Position numbers and translations under genes: made by a program. The notes under the pieces were generated by a model. That model was not told the origin of the DNA, did not search any database, and was given only the letters and a program-made list of their open reading frames with translations. A stretch of 6,875 nt of DNA from Pseudomonadota bacterium (GTDB lineage Bacteria; Myxococcota; Bradymonadia; UBA4248), in the NCBI GenBank assembly GCA_017613855.1, contig JAGACY010000418.1, positions 1 to 6,875 of the forward strand, written 5' to 3'. Below, one piece after another: positions 1,224 to 6,875 of the stretch (its first letter is position 1; each line of letters starts with the position of its first letter).

Positions 1224-1340
1224 TTAAGCTCTATTGAAGTCACAATGCTTCAACATATAGCTGCAAACGCTCGCTTCTTTTGCCTCGATGAGTGCTCTGG
1301 TGACTTCCTCTTGGTCGAATAATGCCGTCATGATGTTCAT
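1224..1340 (-). CDS. 38-codon ORF beginning with a duplicated piece of the Rpn gene (gene remnant or small antitoxin-like peptide)
   Basis: The minus-strand ATG at 1340-1338 opens a 38-codon frame ending in TAA at 1226-1224. Its first 23 residues (MNIMTALFDQEEVTRALIEA then KEA) are identical to residues 216-238 of the Rpn nuclease, because 1270-1342 is a 73-bp copy of 1590-1662. The last 15 residues, SVCSYMLKHCDFNRA, are unrelated to anything else here. The ATG overlaps the stop of the Rpn C-terminal segment as ATGA (1340-1337), and GGAAGG stands seven bases upstream, so coupled translation is possible. The simplest reading is a relic of the 3' end of an Rpn paralogue left by recombination. 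A translated small protein cannot be excluded. No function is assigned. Confidence 0.4.
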   Translation of the reverse strand: MNIMTALFDQEEVTRALIEAKEASVCSYMLKHCDFNRA

Positions 1341-1342
1341 GA
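1270..1342. repeat. 73-bp direct repeat, copy B (partner at 1590-1662)
   Basis: Matches 1590-1662 at 72 of 73 positions with a constant 320-bp offset; the single mismatch is C1284 against T1604. Similarity stops abruptly at both ends. The offset is not a multiple of three, so this copy is read in a different frame from the Rpn gene. Its upstream edge (minus strand) lies two bases before an ATG. Confidence 0.95.
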
Positions 1343-1573
1343 TTTTTCCTTCCAATAGGTTTTCATTGCTTCGTCAGTCTGCTTGTCGTTTAACTTTAAT
1401 TCGACCAGAATATATTGCCGTGTTTCAGTGAATGACTTTCCAAATGATTGACATAATTGAATTGCCATTTGTAGCTTTCCCTCTTTTATCCCCTCTTTTT
1501 TTCCCTCTTTTATCCCCTCTTTTATCCCCTCTTTTATCCCCTCTTTTTTTCCCTCTTTTATCCCCTCTTTTTT
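1337..1573 (-). pseudogene. In-frame C-terminal continuation of the Rpn gene: (I/K)KEG repeats plus small C-terminal domain (RpnS-like)
   Basis: Directly after the TGA at 1576-1574 the same reading frame continues for 78 codons to TGA at 1339-1337. It starts with eight four-residue repeats of the form KKEG or IKEG, then a small helical domain: KLQMAIQLCQSFGKSF, TETRQYILVELKLN, DKQTDEAMKTYWKEKS. Charged KEG-type repeats followed by such a domain are the usual C-terminus of TIGR01784-type Rpn proteins, so this is the missing end of the upstream gene, not an independent gene by origin. It could still be translated. The ATG at 1468-1466 (MAIQLCQ, 43 residues) has GAGGGA nine bases upstream, supplied by the last repeat. 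In characterised E. coli Rpn systems a separately translated C-terminal piece (RpnS) blocks the full-length toxin. Whether that happens here is inference. Confidence 0.75.
1478..1573 (-). repeat. Eight tandem 12-bp repeats encoding (I/K)KEG
   Basis: Eight consecutive 12-bp units, forward consensus [T/C]CCCTCTTTT[A/T]T with no length variation, run from 1478 to 1573. On the minus strand each reads as [ATA or AAA]-AAA-GAG-GG[A/G], giving Ile/Lys-Lys-Glu-Gly. Units differ only at the A/T position and the first C/T. The array is a candidate for copy-number change by slippage in whole units, which keeps the frame. Each unit also contains a Shine-Dalgarno-like GAGGG. Confidence 0.95.
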
Positions 1574-2305
1574 TCACTTTTGTTCGGCTCTCGCTTCTTT
1601 TGCTTCGATGAGTGCTCTGGTGACTTCCTCTTGGTCGAATAATGCCGTCATGATGTTCATGAGTTCTTTCTCCCGGGTCTTGAGATATTCATCCAGAATG
1701 GCTTTGCATTTGCAAATCCTGATGGTTTCCTGCAATGCCTTACGTGACTTGCCATACAGTTTGACCTGCTGATCGAGTACATTGCAAAAGGTAATGTACT
1801 GATAGATGATGTCTCCCTTTTTCCCTGCATAAATGACTCTTGTTTTTACCTCAATATCGCATCTTTTGCCTTTAAAGAAATGCTCTCTGAGCGAAATAAA
1901 GCGTACCTTATGCTTACGCCTGCCCGTAAAGAGAATATACAGTTCCGGCATGGGAAGTTCAACTTTGACGTTCTCGTATAATGACTTTCCCAATTCAGAA
2001 AAGTAATCTACATAAGTTTGTGCCGCGTAGCAGAATGATCTGATCAGGATGTTGGGAGTCCAGGTGCTTTGCGCTTCTACGAGAATTAAAAGGCGGTTGC
2101 CGACCCGAAATCCAAGATCGTTGTAAGGATGGTCCGCGAGGATGCTTTTGATTGTTACCGTTTTTAGATCGGCTGGACGTGCGGTTTTATCCTCGGGGTG
2201 CAATGCCTTGTAGAGCTGCCATACGTATTTGGGATCTGAGAATAAATCGGTAAACAGACAGTCTTTGGCAGTTCGTTTGGACGTCGTTGTTTGAGTGTCA
2301 CACAT
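1574..2305 (-). CDS. Rpn-family recombination-promoting nuclease / PD-(D/E)XK putative transposase, prematurely terminated
   Basis: Encodes 243 residues of a protein whose family members are usually about 280-330 long. The N-terminus CLFTDLFSDPKYVWQLYKAL matches the start of TIGR01784/PDDEXK_2 proteins. The nuclease core shows Asp63 in YNDLGFRVGN and the E-x-Q form of the catalytic motif in LILVEAQSTW (Glu77, Gln79), followed by the conserved helix RSFCYAAQTYVDYF. LPMPELYILFTGRR is the next core strand. The ATG has GGAG about nine bases upstream. The frame ends at TGA (1576-1574), which replaces what would be a Gly codon (GGA) just before the repeat array. The catalytic domain is complete, but the repeat-plus-C-terminal domain is cut off. 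Rpn proteins are Ca/Mg-dependent DNA endonucleases that raise RecA-independent recombination and, in some E. coli cases, act as anti-phage toxins. It stands alone with its own RBS, after a terminator. Confidence 0.87.
   Translation of the reverse strand: MCDTQTTTSKRTAKDCLFTDLFSDPKYVWQLYKALHPEDKTARPADLKTVTIKSILADHPYNDLGFRVGNRLLILVEAQSTWTPNILIRSFCYAAQTYVDYFSELGKSLYENVKVELPMPELYILFTGRRKHKVRFISLREHFFKGKRCDIEVKTRVIYAGKKGDIIYQYITFCNVLDQQVKLYGKSRKALQETIRICKCKAILDEYLKTREKELMNIMTALFDQEEVTRALIEAKEARAEQK
1590..1662. repeat. 73-bp direct repeat, copy A, inside the Rpn gene (partner at 1270-1342)
   Basis: This copy encodes Rpn residues 216-238 in frame, plus flanking bases. With copy B it flanks 247 bp that hold the premature stop, the 12-bp array and the C-terminal domain. 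Recombination between the copies would delete exactly 320 bp. Confidence 0.95.
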
Positions 2306-2474: not shown

Positions 2475-3938
2475 TTAACGCTCAATACCGGTAAAATAGA
2501 TGCATGCGTTTTCGTAATCGGCAATGGCGTTGGCTTCTTTCATCAGCATCAGTCCGGCGAGTCCGGCACTGCCCGTGGCAGACGGGGTAATATCTGTATG
2601 GGAGTGGGCAAGATCGTGCGCAGCTTTGAGATGATCTTCGTCGGCGACAAGAGGAATACCGCCCGTGCGGAACATCGTGCAGATAATGGCATACCAGTCG
2701 TAGGTTTCGTCGTCGAGAATACCATGCGCGATTGAGTGAGGAGCCGATTCCCAGGGCCACATAAAGAGTGGTTTGTTCGCGGCGGCATATCGAACTGCCG
2801 ACTGGACTGCAGTGGAATCCCATGCTGATCGGATGCAGTCGGCCATAATGAGCCGTTGCTCGATGGCGGATACATCGTGAGCAGCCGCGCGGACACCGAC
2901 CGAGAGATCATCTTCATACGGTTTAAATGAAGGTATTTCCTGTCCTTTAAGGCGTGCGTCGATGACTTTGACGATGCGGTCGTAAGCACGGGCGAGTGGG
3001 AAGGCCCCGCGTGTTTGAACCGTGTGGAAACGCGGAAGTGTGGGGAGTGGCTCGTGGCGCATGACTTCTGCGAGTGCCTGTGCTGAACTCGATGCGAGTG
3101 CACCGCCGCCGACCTGTACGAACATGTGGTGGCATGCGTGATTGTTCTCTCGCCATTGGTCGAAAAGCTCATAAGCGAGTGTTTCGCCTCCTTCGATGGT
3201 CAGCCCGTTGTCCGGTCCTTGACAGGTAAAAGGAATGGCACCATTTTTTACGGCTTCGAGTGAGCACAGATAACATGGATCGCCGAGTTCACCTTCGTGG
3301 CGTTCGCAGATGTGAAGTGTTGCTCCGAGGGCTTTGAGACGTTCGACGACGCTTTCTTCGGCATCTGTCGGAATGAAGACTTCGAGCTTCGCACCGGCGG
3401 CTTTACTGACAACGGCTGCCGCAAGCGCTGCATTGCCGCAGCTGGCAATGGCAAATGGGCGATGGAGGGCATCTTCCGATAAATTGAGCAGAATGCCGAA
3501 TAAATGACGTGCTTTGTGCGAACCGGCAACATTGTGCGTTTCATTTTTTACAAATAATTTCTGCATCGGATCAAAACCGATGGCATCTGCCAGTTCCGGT
3601 TCAATCGTGAGCGGCGTTTCGGTAAACCCCGTGCCGTCGATGGCCTGAAGTGCACCATCCAGGCGCGAAACCTTTTCGATGTAATCAATATCCGAATGGT
3701 TGGAATTGATGGTGCGGTGATAACCCAGCAGACGATGACGATAGCGGATGAAGGGATTCTTCGAATCTTCGAGCTTGCTGCGCTGCCATATCTGCTGCGT
3801 AATGACATGTTTCTTTTGCAGAACATGATTGACGTTTGGCATGCAGTCCCGATTTGGGCATGAAAATGTCTCTAAATCGTAAGCGTGAACGCGTGTACCA
3901 CAACCGACACAGGAAACGTAATGATGCTGCGGAATCAT
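2475..3938 (-). CDS. PLP-dependent fold-type II enzyme, threonine-synthase-like, with N-terminal zinc ribbon
   Basis: Encodes 487 residues. An N-terminal Cys4 ribbon is formed by Cys10, Cys13, Cys27 and Cys32 (C-x2-C-x13-C-x4-C), as in archaeal-type threonine synthases and cysteate synthase. NPFIRYRHRLL (61-71) and GTGFTETPL (102-110) match the family's substrate-side segments. The PLP lysine is Lys142 in NVAGSHKARHLFGI. The phosphate/cofactor region has SCGNAALAAA (166-175) and the glycine-rich loop VGGGALASS (276-284). TPSATGSAGLAGL (451-463) closes the active site. The Lys motif is SHKAR, not the SFKDRG of classical threonine synthase, so the reaction (threonine, cysteate or another beta-replacement/elimination product) is undecided. 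GAGGAG six bases upstream fixes the start. It is monocistronic, between two hairpins, with no thrA/thrB or other amino-acid genes nearby. The enzyme would be cytoplasmic. Confidence 0.85.
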   Translation of the reverse strand: MIPQHHYVSCVGCGTRVHAYDLETFSCPNRDCMPNVNHVLQKKHVITQQIWQRSKLEDSKNPFIRYRHRLLGYHRTINSNHSDIDYIEKVSRLDGALQAIDGTGFTETPLTIEPELADAIGFDPMQKLFVKNETHNVAGSHKARHLFGILLNLSEDALHRPFAIASCGNAALAAAVVSKAAGAKLEVFIPTDAEESVVERLKALGATLHICERHEGELGDPCYLCSLEAVKNGAIPFTCQGPDNGLTIEGGETLAYELFDQWRENNHACHHMFVQVGGGALASSSAQALAEVMRHEPLPTLPRFHTVQTRGAFPLARAYDRIVKVIDARLKGQEIPSFKPYEDDLSVGVRAAAHDVSAIEQRLIMADCIRSAWDSTAVQSAVRYAAANKPLFMWPWESAPHSIAHGILDDETYDWYAIICTMFRTGGIPLVADEDHLKAAHDLAHSHTDITPSATGSAGLAGLMLMKEANAIADYENACIYFTGIER

Positions 3939-4150: not shown

Positions 4151-6562
4151 TCACTTTTTCGTCAGGTCATACACCAATGTCGCCTGCCGATGGACGCTTT
4201 TGGTCGTACCACTTTCGCTCTTGCGTTTATAGCCAACCATCAGGTTCAGGTAGAGCTTGCCGTTGGCAGCCCGGATGCCTTCGGGCTCGAAAAATCCCGT
4301 TGGCTGCATGTCATACTCGCCAGACTCGTCAATTTCGGTAAAGTGGAACATCGGATCGATCTTTTCATTGTCCATGAAGTATTGCTCACATTCGCAATAT
4401 CTGTTGTTTTCTCCGTGGCAGTTCTTCTTGCCACAAGAAGAATTCTGTTCAGTGTCGACGAACACTTTCGTCTTTTTGAGGGCACCTAAAAAGTAGACGT
4501 ACTCCTCACCACCATTGCTGTTCATCGCCGTGTCTTTGATGGCATCCTTGCCGCCGATGGGTTCGCCGTCGTAAGTATACACAAAGATTGGGAGCATCGA
4601 ACGATAGGAATACTGCTGTTCTTTTCCTTCCTTGGTTTCCAGAAGATAGGGCATGCGCGGTATTGTATAGATAATGCCATTTTCGTACTCCATGCCCTGG
4701 ATCGGAACGACGCGCTTGGTGAACTCATGTATTGGCTTGAGCGTTGAAAGATCTTTGACCATGGCTGAAACCACGCCGGTATTCAGGCTGTTGTAATTGT
4801 CCAGATAGGTGAATGGTTTGGGGAACGTCACCTGCGTAGCTTTGAGCGCCTTGACGGTATCCAGGTTGTAGATGCGCACGGTTTCTTTGGTATTCGGGCA
4901 TTTGCCGTCATCCCCTATCACACACATCTTGTCCTTAAAGGCAAACAGGTTGTTCTTGGTGTCCAGGCCCGGCTCCAAAAAGTGATGGTATTCCTTCTCT
5001 TTGCCAACATAATAATAATTCTCGGGCACCTGGTTCGGATAAAACGATACCCCCTCCTGCCACGGCACGCGCGAGATGGTTTGTGAATGGATATCCGTAC
5101 CTTTGCACTCTTGTTCGGTATCGCTCTTTTTGGTGCATGTCAGCGTGTTAAAGTTGGCAAACCACAGGTAGTCCTGATCCTCGGTATGCTCGACACTCAG
5201 GTTTTGGCCATGCCCCGCATTGTGGAATGTCATTGCCGCGGTGTTGTGTTCCCCATCATTCTTAAAGATCAGGACATTCGTTCGGGTGCTGGTATATTTG
5301 ACGTTTCCGGCTTTGCCGTTCACTACCATCGTATAACTCGGGGTCGGTCCGGTGAGCCGCGTAAAGTATTGCTCGTTTTCGTCATAAAAATCGAATCCTT
5401 GCGAAAATCCTCCTGATTGCAGCGTTATTGGCGTCTTTAATAGATGTACGTATTTACCATCGACATTCTCGGTGATATCCCCGTTAAGTGCATCCAGGTT
5501 GATGATGTGCAGCTTCATGGTTCCGGTCACTCCTGGCTGGTCCTTGATGCTGACGACGCATGTGGTCGTACCCGGGGCAACCGCTTTAAACGTCGGTGCC
5601 TTGGGGTCTTTGTCATTTTTCGCCACGGTGGCTATCGAAGGATCGAGTGTCTCTAGAACGACATCGTCTTTGCACGGCAAATCGGCGTATGTGTAGGTTT
5701 TTTTGTTAGTCTTAAAATGCAATGGCATGTTGTACGAGGTGTGCCCTGTGGAGCCAGGCTTGAGCAAGTCCAGTTCCGTATAGTCGAACCAGATAGCCTC
5801 CATAATTTCTTCGCCGCATTTTGTGATGCATACACCGGCTCCATCGCAGCGGTCCGGGCAAATCTCGGGACATTGGCACGCGCCATTGACATCGCACGAA
5901 GACAGGCATGTTTCGGGGCATAAACACGCCCCATCTTCGCCGCATTCCCCGGGACAGGCTTCGGAACATTGGCATACCCCCATGTCATTGCATGACGTAC
6001 GGCATGTCTCCGGGCAAATACATTTACCGTCATCGTCACATCCTTCGTCACATTCCTCTGGGCACGTCGTCTTGCACTTGCCGTTTTCGTCGCACCCACT
6101 ATCGCAGTCTTCAGGACACGTGGCCTTGCAGGTTCCGTCATCGTTGCATCCTTCGTTGCATTCCTCAGGACACGTCGCTTTGCACTTGCCGTTTTCGTCG
6201 CACCCACTATCGCATTCTTCAGGACACGAGGCCTTACAGGTTCCGTCATCGTTGCATCCTTCGGTGCATTCCTCCGGACATACAGCCTTGCAGGTTCCGT
6301 CATCGTTGCATCCTTCGGTGCATTCCTCCGGACACACTGTTTTGCATTTGCCGTTTTCGTCGCACCCGTTGTCGCATTCTTCTGGGCAAACCGACCCACA
6401 TTTGGCCAAAGAATTCTCATCGCAATGGTCACCGGTCTTACAATCACATTCCGCGCTGCCCGAATCCTGGCTGTTCGGAGCCTTTGAATCCTCTGAACAG
6501 CCAACGATTAATGTCATAAGAACCGCCGTGAACACTGCGTTTTCTTTAAAAAATCGTTTCAT
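4151..6562 (-). CDS. Large cysteine-rich repeat lipoprotein with Ig-like segment and helveticin-J-like C-terminal domain
   Basis: Encodes 803 residues. MKRFFKENAVFTAVLMTLIV precedes lipobox IVGC, with lipidated Cys22 followed by Ser, so an envelope lipoprotein, probably outer-membrane or surface. Residues 59-248 are eleven four-cysteine repeats (listed separately). About 249-352 look Ig-like (BIG_2 type): LDPSIATVAKND, FKAVAPGTTTCVVSI, TGTMKLHI. From about 370 to 803 the order of motifs recalls helveticin J / class III bacteriocin-type proteins: AGHGQNLSVE (449-458), SQTISRVP (493-500), LEPGLDTKNNLFAF (529-542), TVRIYNLDTVKAL (561-573), QGMEYENGIIYTIPR (622-636), EPEGIRAANGKLYLNLMVGY (759-778). 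This resemblance is from memory of the family and moderate. A four-cysteine cluster lies at 710-725. GGAGG five bases upstream supports the ATG at 6562 over in-frame ATGs at 6574 and 6658. Function unknown; adhesion or a surface-binding propeller is inferred. Confidence 0.8.
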   Translation of the reverse strand: MKRFFKENAVFTAVLMTLIVGCSEDSKAPNSQDSGSAECDCKTGDHCDENSLAKCGSVCPEECDNGCDENGKCKTVCPEECTEGCNDDGTCKAVCPEECTEGCNDDGTCKASCPEECDSGCDENGKCKATCPEECNEGCNDDGTCKATCPEDCDSGCDENGKCKTTCPEECDEGCDDDGKCICPETCRTSCNDMGVCQCSEACPGECGEDGACLCPETCLSSCDVNGACQCPEICPDRCDGAGVCITKCGEEIMEAIWFDYTELDLLKPGSTGHTSYNMPLHFKTNKKTYTYADLPCKDDVVLETLDPSIATVAKNDKDPKAPTFKAVAPGTTTCVVSIKDQPGVTGTMKLHIINLDALNGDITENVDGKYVHLLKTPITLQSGGFSQGFDFYDENEQYFTRLTGPTPSYTMVVNGKAGNVKYTSTRTNVLIFKNDGEHNTAAMTFHNAGHGQNLSVEHTEDQDYLWFANFNTLTCTKKSDTEQECKGTDIHSQTISRVPWQEGVSFYPNQVPENYYYVGKEKEYHHFLEPGLDTKNNLFAFKDKMCVIGDDGKCPNTKETVRIYNLDTVKALKATQVTFPKPFTYLDNYNSLNTGVVSAMVKDLSTLKPIHEFTKRVVPIQGMEYENGIIYTIPRMPYLLETKEGKEQQYSYRSMLPIFVYTYDGEPIGGKDAIKDTAMNSNGGEEYVYFLGALKKTKVFVDTEQNSSCGKKNCHGENNRYCECEQYFMDNEKIDPMFHFTEIDESGEYDMQPTGFFEPEGIRAANGKLYLNLMVGYKRKSESGTTKSVHRQATLVYDLTKK
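5819..6388 (-). repeat. Eleven tandem four-cysteine repeats (54-bp then 48-bp units) in the lipoprotein
   Basis: Residues 59-166 are six 18-residue units with spacing C-x3-C-x3-C-x5-C-x3, for example CPEECDNGCDENGKCKTV. Residues 167-230 are four 16-residue units where the last gap shrinks to one residue (CPETCRTSCNDMGVCQ). Residues 231-248 are a final unit. The 18-residue units fall into two subtypes, DENGKC and NDDGTC, in the order A-B-B-A-B-A. Units 2 and 3 are almost identical at DNA level, which points to recent unit duplication. The 44 cysteines suggest a rigid disulfide-bonded stalk; the acidic DDDG/DENG loops might bind calcium (inference). Confidence 0.93.
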
Positions 6563-6875
6563 TGAATCCTCCATAAATGTGGTCAACGACAGAGAATGGA
6601 ATCCTGCTTGTATTTGATTTTTAGGGGGAGTGGGCAAGTTTATTCGAATGGCTCTCATCTCTCATGCCTCATCCCTTAATACTCCATTTTTATTGAAAAA
6701 CAGAAATCAACTTGCGATTGAATCATTCCTCTTAAATGAAATCATTTTTTTGAAAAAAGAATTTGACTCTCGACTTCATTGCGCGTATAAGCCCGCCTCG
6801 CCAACGGGATGGATGACATTTCGGCGGCAAACTTTGAAAACAGAATAGAAGAAAGCGATAGAGAGAAATGGGCGA
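6563..6875. other. Gene-free stretch upstream of the lipoprotein
   Basis: No credible gene is seen in this 313-bp stretch. It holds the lipoprotein leader: GGAGG (6572-6568) five bases before the start codon, and three tandem heptamers at 6652-6672. The right end (6746-6875) is AT-rich with A/T runs; short open frames run off the edge on the minus strand, but none looks coding. The lipoprotein promoter should lie here; no clean -35/-10 pair was found. Confidence 0.5.
6652..6672 (-). repeat. Three tandem heptamers in the lipoprotein leader
   Basis: On the minus strand ATGAGGC, ATGAGAG, ATGAGAG follow one another without spacers, about 90-110 bases upstream of the start codon. They could be a regulator binding array or chance; the first in-frame ATG upstream of the chosen start (6658) belongs to this array and has no ribosome binding site. 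Confidence 0.4.

What the first reader, a model, noticed from the sequence alone, without database searches (positions are those of the whole stretch)
1337..2305. Rpn locus matching the gene-within-gene toxin-antitoxin/anti-phage design, with the toxin and C-terminal parts split by a stop codon
The 243-residue nuclease part ends just before eight four-residue (I/K)KEG repeats and a small helical C-terminal domain read in the same frame. Published work on E. coli Rpn proteins described the C-terminal domain (RpnS) as a separately translated inhibitor of the full-length toxin (RpnL), with four-residue repeats whose number varies between strains, and an anti-phage role. The domain order and repeat unit length here fit that design. 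In this genome the full-length protein would not be made without readthrough, so either the toxin is uncoupled from its own C-terminal domain, or the locus is decaying. Possible internal starts are the ATG at 1660-1658 (GGGAG nine bases upstream) and the ATG at 1468-1466 (GAGGGA nine bases upstream).
Basis: partly seen in the sequence, partly recalled or inferred. Interest (0 to 1): 0.75.

Follow-up and report, generated by a model that had tools for sequence, protein, structure and literature searches.

The report
Broken self-inhibiting nuclease toxin gene
A bacterium carries a gene that looks like a distant relative of the Rpn nuclease toxins, whose own tail is thought to act as the antidote; here a stop codon cuts both toxin and antidote short, while its closest relatives lack that stop and some kin carry spare antidote copies behind the gene.

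Summary
A 243-codon nuclease frame (2305-1574, minus strand) ends at TGA 1576-1574, then eight (I/K)KEG units and a small helical domain continue in frame. The Rpn gene-within-gene reading fits the ancestor of the locus, not this copy. A 90% identical relative (P0002) reads through the junction with four units; the same gene beside the same neighbour in UBA4248 (L001) is open across it until its contig ends. The ATG at 1660 and a Shine-Dalgarno before it are conserved in relatives. In 7 of 21 loci with downstream sequence (window included), C-terminal copies lie behind the gene; 7 of the 9 copies begin 2-7 codons before that ATG, much as in E. coli rpnE/ypaA. So nuclease and antitoxin both lose repeats and tail. 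Verdict: a divergent Rpn-like locus, recently truncated, probably no longer a working pair. The wider lead: downstream copies often differ from their parent gene by whole four-residue units.

The parts
1574..2305 (-). Rpn-like nuclease part, 243 aa, ending at TGA 1576-1574
   Evidence: 1331 homologues (120 listed); dN 0.045 / dS 0.561 against L001 over codons 1-240
2069..2119 (-). motif D63 ... E77-x-Q79, intact
   Evidence: invariant in all 30 members of A1; aligned with D62 and E81-x-Q83 of E. coli RpnC by hhalign; that this is the PD-(D/E)XK motif is recalled
1658..1674 (-). conserved internal start: GGGAG (1674-1670), 9 nt, ATG (1660-1658)
   Evidence: (A/C)GGGAG in 11 of 11 loci that have Arg-Glu there (11 of the 20 tested)
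1574..1660 (-). product of the internal start in this copy: 28 aa only
1478..1573 (-). eight four-residue (I/K)KEG units after the stop
1337..1477 (-). small C-terminal domain (46 aa) and its TGA (1339-1337); holds ATG 1468-1466 (43-aa product)
   Evidence: 34 of 46 residues identical to the P0002 tail, which is modelled as helical
1270..1345 (-). second copy of the 76-nt segment around the internal start (first copy 1665-1590)
   Evidence: 97% identity
1224..1340 (-). truncated downstream rpnS-like ORF, 38 aa, ATG overlapping the tail's TGA (ATGA)
   Evidence: same overlap in L015

Best explanation
This is a broken copy of a distant Rpn-like gene-within-gene toxin-antitoxin locus. In intact relatives the long product would be a PD-(D/E)XK nuclease with a repeat helix and small tail (RpnL), and a second product would start at the conserved internal ATG and consist of helix, repeats and tail (RpnS), pairing with the long product through the repeat helix and holding it inactive. 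In the window one nonsense codon between helix and repeats truncates both products (243 aa and 28 aa), and a downstream spare antitoxin copy is also truncated (38 aa). The most likely state is a recently disabled system drifting towards loss, kept harmless because a nuclease without repeats and tail cannot assemble or act properly. Shown: the sequence facts, conservation, copy boundaries. Inferred: translation from the internal start, inhibition, and loss of activity.
For: P0002 (306 aa, 90%) reads through the junction with four units; L001, beside the same PLP-enzyme neighbour, is open across the junction to its contig end. Internal ATG with Shine-Dalgarno in relatives: duplex energies sum -165.4 over 20 loci against a synonymous resampling mean of -110.2, 0 of 1000 as low. 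Downstream copies begin 2-7 codons before that Met in 7 of 9 copies; in E. coli the match of the ypaA region to rpnE begins 4 residues before rpnE Met 244 and annotated ypaA starts at the matching Met; 19 of 22 small homologues, the query included, start exactly at M(N/D)IM. Recency of the stop: nuclease dN/dS about 0.08 against L001; tail open and 34 of 46 identical to P0002, which neutral drift over half the path (0.28) gives with P 0.002. Decay is seen in other copies: inner stops in L003 and L026, a fragment in L006.
Against: The nuclease motif is intact and the frame conserved, which also fits a still-used 243-aa protein. The tail frame remains open with a plausible start at 1468. Only 4 of 20 loci are individually below 0.05 in the Shine-Dalgarno test, the loci share ancestry, and some other Met codons score as strongly or more so. 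No expression data. The link to E. coli Rpn is weak by sequence: rpnC 10.4 bits with the family HMM, rpnE not among the 12 best rows printed, which include decoys down to 3.9 bits; hhalign probability 60.5, E 8.4e-5.
Confidence: 0.6

Rival explanations
1. Functional split: the 243-aa nuclease and the tail (43 aa from ATG 1468, using the last repeat's GAGGGA as Shine-Dalgarno) are made as two separate proteins that interact, a two-gene version of the system.
For: Start with well-spaced GAGGGA; that Met is also in P0002; tail open and 34 of 46 identical to P0002; separate rpnS genes are reported in E. coli (PMC10327210) and stand-alone copies are seen here.
Against: The product would lack the N-terminal helix that all 18 aligned stand-alone copies keep (some of these have no repeats either); no stand-alone relative of this tail was found (limited sensitivity); the downstream copy in the same locus is itself truncated.
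Confidence: 0.2
2. The TGA is read through or bypassed at low level, so full-length protein is made in small amounts.
For: The frame is open on both sides and similar to P0002 on both.
Against: P0002 and L001 have no stop there; TGA ends the main genes of L015, L020, L021 and L025; no recoding signal was identified, though none was searched for systematically.
Confidence: 0.07
3. The TGA is a sequencing or assembly error, or a rare variant in the sampled population.
For: No whole genome is held for the window; the L001 contig ends in this repeat, so assembly is hard here.
Against: The identical truncated protein is recorded on 2 contigs.
Confidence: 0.13

Closest known systems
E. coli Rpn proteins RpnL/RpnS (TIGR01784, COG5464; Zhong et al. 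2023, PMC10327210)
   Same: Nuclease motif D...ExQ, variable four-residue repeats, small helical tail, internal start, stand-alone downstream antitoxin copies (rpnE/ypaA) with a similar upstream boundary.
   Different: Sequence link is remote and the window piece matches no Rpn model; this copy has a nonsense codon that truncates both products, and its downstream copy is truncated.
rpn orthologue in Myxococcales bacterium UBA4248 (L001/G001), and P0002
   Same: 90-91% identical nuclease; in L001 the same neighbouring PLP-enzyme gene; similar tail in P0002 (L001 ends in the repeats).
   Different: No stop at the junction; fewer repeat units (four in P0002; three before the contig end in L001).
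L015 locus (G003:C185)
   Same: Truncated downstream copy of the internal-start segment whose ATG overlaps the main gene's TGA.
   Different: Main frame intact; different tail type; copy is 24 aa.

Membership tests
Rpn family (TIGR01784 / PF12784 / PF04754) | score above curated model cut-off | tested here: not met
   window piece: no Rpn-model match at E<=1; P0002 14.4 bits against 52.1. Of 30 family members, 22 match TIGR01784 (best E 3.3e-13, bits of that member not seen), 14 PF04754 (best 0.0099) and 6 PF12784 (best 0.002) at E<=1; highest of the 10 proteins listed is 31.7 bits
Rpn family (TIGR01784 / PF12784 / PF04754) | PD-(D/E)XK nuclease core | tested here: inconclusive
Rpn gene-within-gene toxin-antitoxin (Zhong et al. 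2023) | four-residue repeats of variable number before a small helical tail | tested here: met
   8 units in window, 4 in P0002, 3 before the contig end in L001; stand-alone relative modelled as one long and two short helices at moderate confidence; RpnA-S 7TH0 superposed over 45 columns, rmsd 1.9, but rank 12 and E 2.4
Rpn gene-within-gene toxin-antitoxin (Zhong et al. 2023) | small protein translated from an internal start | tested here: inconclusive
   comparative support only: conserved ATG and Shine-Dalgarno, copy boundaries; translation itself not testable
Rpn gene-within-gene toxin-antitoxin (Zhong et al. 2023) | open full-length frame RpnL and RpnS sharing the tail | tested here: not met
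   TGA at 1576-1574 in the window; frame open across the junction in P0002 and L001
Rpn gene-within-gene toxin-antitoxin (Zhong et al. 2023) | RpnS blocks RpnL toxicity; anti-phage effect | not testable with these tools
   needs experiments

The most novel reading that the evidence does not exclude
Downstream rpnS copies are not simply extra antitoxin: they are a local store of alternative repeat lengths. In 5 of 7 parent/copy pairs compared (4 of 6 from relatives, plus E. coli rpnE/ypaA) the copy differs from its parent by a multiple of four residues. By the E. coli finding that repeat numbers must match for inhibition (shown for RpnC, PMC10327210), such copies would fail to silence their neighbour. 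Gene conversion from them could re-tune which long and short forms pair, and recombination between the direct repeats would delete or swap tails. The window would be a locus caught after such rearrangement.
Probability: 0.15. Interest if true: 0.65.

Novelty: new member of a known kind. Interest (0 to 1): 0.4.

Why it matters
It carries the gene-within-gene antitoxin architecture into a remote Rpn-like branch, in relatives of a Myxococcales genome. It also gives a natural test of where the antitoxin unit begins: duplications in several loci start just before the same internal ATG. The mismatch of repeat number between parent genes and their downstream copies makes the open question of how Rpn repeat specificity changes directly testable in laboratory strains. 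The window copy itself is probably just a decaying member.

Tried and rejected
No whole genome is held for the window, so paralogues and strain variation in this species could not be checked. The viral-contig scan with the family alignment matched 80 pattern stretches and no relative. A stand-alone homologue search with the window's tail (residues 31-78 of the 78-aa piece) found no candidate. PADLOC gave only weak hits, E 0.0072 for the nuclease piece and 0.0075 for the tail. DNA search of the flank 640-1475 in 8 genomes matched in 4: G004 over 244 nt of the IHF-coding part at 68%, otherwise only short stretches in or next to the internal-start segment (35-79 nt; G001 79 nt), so an empty site next to the IHF gene could not be shown. 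One promoter-like match (2.6 expected) and no terminator (1.7 expected) in 1080-2500. Foldseek of both models gave nothing at 1e-3. The PDB profile search with the stand-alone copies ranked a repeat protein first (8vd6, E 4.7e-10) and RpnA-S eighth at E 0.52; the profile of the whole family found no nuclease. FliH and Yae1 hits of the tail I took for low-complexity matches to the repeats.

Counts and drops: one search covered 95 genomes, 7 with matches; matches without a locus were not examined one by one. In one search, 25 sequences were given; 21 had more than 100 nt downstream; 7 of these 21 had copies at E<=0.1, 9 copies in all. The two copies not beginning at the internal Met by tblastn are L011 (tail only, +35) and the first copy of L025 (+54; its DNA starts at the same place but is frameshifted). 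For L004, of another subfamily, I set the internal-Met motif after seeing its copies, so its two copies are not a blind test. L002 (same as L001), L007, L013, L019, L023, L024, L031 and L032 were left out as duplicates, fragments or not matched; L007 carries a duplicated tail on another protein. The Shine-Dalgarno test used 20 of the 25. Copies within one array, and loci of one subfamily, are not independent. Of the 22 small homologues, 3 do not start at M(N/D)IM: P0125 (internal), P0136 (N-terminal extension), P0142 (different); the list includes the query itself (P0121), is limited to proteins near the query's length, and rests on automatic gene calls. In the repeat-length comparison I left out window, L015, L011, first copy of L025, L007 and L051, where the copy lacks the repeats, is broken or partial, has no parent in the locus, or (L007) sits on another kind of protein; the L004 stretch is not a clean repeat; E. 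coli K-12 rpnE is annotated inactive and ypaA a pseudogene.

Full report
OBSERVATION. The minus-strand frame 2305-1574 encodes 243 residues and ends at TGA 1576-1574. The same frame then gives eight four-residue (I/K)KEG units (1573-1478), a 46-residue domain (1477-1340) and a TGA at 1339-1337. The array is a clear tandem repeat. Both proposed internal starts exist as described. The identical 243-aa protein is recorded on two contigs, this window being one, so the TGA is probably not a lone assembly slip.

First, a 76-nt segment around the internal ATG at 1660 (1665-1590) is repeated with 2 differences at 1345-1270, directly behind the tail. The copy's ATG (1340-1338) overlaps the tail's stop (ATGA) and opens a 38-aa frame, MNIMTALFDQEEVTRALIEAKEA plus 15 other residues. 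Second, the product of the internal start at 1660 is only 28 aa, because it meets the same TGA. So nuclease and presumed antitoxin are cut at the same point.

RELATIVES. 1331 proteins match at E<=1e-3 (120 listed). P0002 (306 aa, 90%) runs through the junction with four units into a similar tail. L001, from the MAG Myxococcales bacterium UBA4248, holds the same gene next to the same PLP-enzyme gene, and its contig ends just behind the repeat units. Between window and L001 the nuclease codons 1-240 show dN 0.045 and dS 0.561; the PLP enzyme shows 0.008 and 0.568. The equal dS fits one vertically inherited locus under purifying selection (inference). The two 76-nt copies differ at 2 sites and the first differs from L001 at 7, so the duplication is younger than the split or the copies were homogenised later. 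The tail is 34 of 46 identical to P0002 and still open. Neutral drift over half the path (0.28) would give that with probability 0.002, over 0.10 with 0.37. The stop is therefore younger than most of the branch, or the tail is still used.

THE GENE-WITHIN-GENE UNIT. Zhong et al. 2023 (PMC10327210; I read parts 1-3 of 4 of the text, from abstract through methods into the reference list; part 4 was not read) report that RpnS tails are translated from internal starts, block RpnL, carry four-residue repeats whose number must match (shown for RpnC), and also occur as second copies behind rpnE and rpnC. Three comparative tests support such a unit in this remote branch. (a) The internal Met keeps a Shine-Dalgarno: in 11 of 11 loci with Arg-Glu before it (of 20 tested) the codons are (A/C)GG GAG, though these make up 27% of Arg and 35% of Glu codons in the set. 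Over 20 loci the summed anti-SD duplex energy is -165.4 against a synonymous-codon mean of -110.2 (0 of 1000 as low). Only 4 of 20 are below 0.05 alone, shared ancestry is not corrected for, and some other Met codons score as well or better. (b) Of 21 loci with downstream sequence, 7 carry copies of their own C-terminal part, 9 copies in all; 7 of the 9 begin 2-7 codons before this Met (for L004 the motif was set after seeing its copies). E. coli behaves alike: the match of the ypaA region to rpnE begins 4 residues before rpnE Met 244, and annotated ypaA starts at the matching Met (that Met 244 is the RpnE internal start was not stated in the text I read). (c) 19 of 22 small homologues, the query included, start exactly at M(N/D)IM.

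MECHANISM AND STATE. In intact relatives I infer the Rpn scheme: a long nuclease and a short internal product pair through the repeat helix, and the short one holds the nuclease inactive. In the window both forms lose repeats and tail, and the spare downstream copy is truncated. Other copies in related genomes also carry stops or are fragments. I judge recent decay most likely (0.6); a functional split using ATG 1468 is the main rival (0.2).

BEYOND THE WINDOW. Parent and downstream copy differ by a multiple of four residues in 5 of 7 pairs (L020 -2 units, L025 second copy -6, L004 first copy -1, L068 -1, E. coli +1), are equal in one (L004 second copy), and differ by 3 residues near the start in one (L021). 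L015 repeats the window's design: the TGA of the main gene overlaps the ATG of a truncated copy. If E. coli's matching rule holds, many downstream copies could not silence their neighbour, which suggests a store of repeat lengths. I give this 0.15. Literature searches (listings and abstract starts only) showed me only PMC10327210 on downstream rpnS copies.

Noticed in passing
L062/L068 (G038:C24): A 359-aa protein with an IEMQ motif is followed by a 129-aa ORF that copies its C-terminal third with four residues fewer in the repeats.
   Followed up: partly
L051 (G006:C121): Two tandem stand-alone C-terminal copies with clearly different numbers of KIEG units.
   Followed up: partly
L007 (G001:C134): A 301-aa protein matched only in its C-terminal part ends in a tail of the window's type, and that tail is duplicated just downstream.
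   Followed up: no
window 6027-6379: Tandem 54-nt (108-nt) repeats encode a Cys-rich CPEEC stretch in an 806-835 residue ORF (4151 to 6571 or 6658, minus); the 806-aa form has no Pfam or NCBIfam hit at E<=1.
   Followed up: no
window 2475-3938: 487-aa PLP-dependent threonine-synthase-like protein with a Cys-rich N-terminus; none of the 25 NCBIfam matches shown reaches its cut-off.
   Followed up: no
P0118, P0121-P0141: The database tags most of these small copies with PF27070, a family not returned by the Pfam scan here; its description was not seen.
   Followed up: partly
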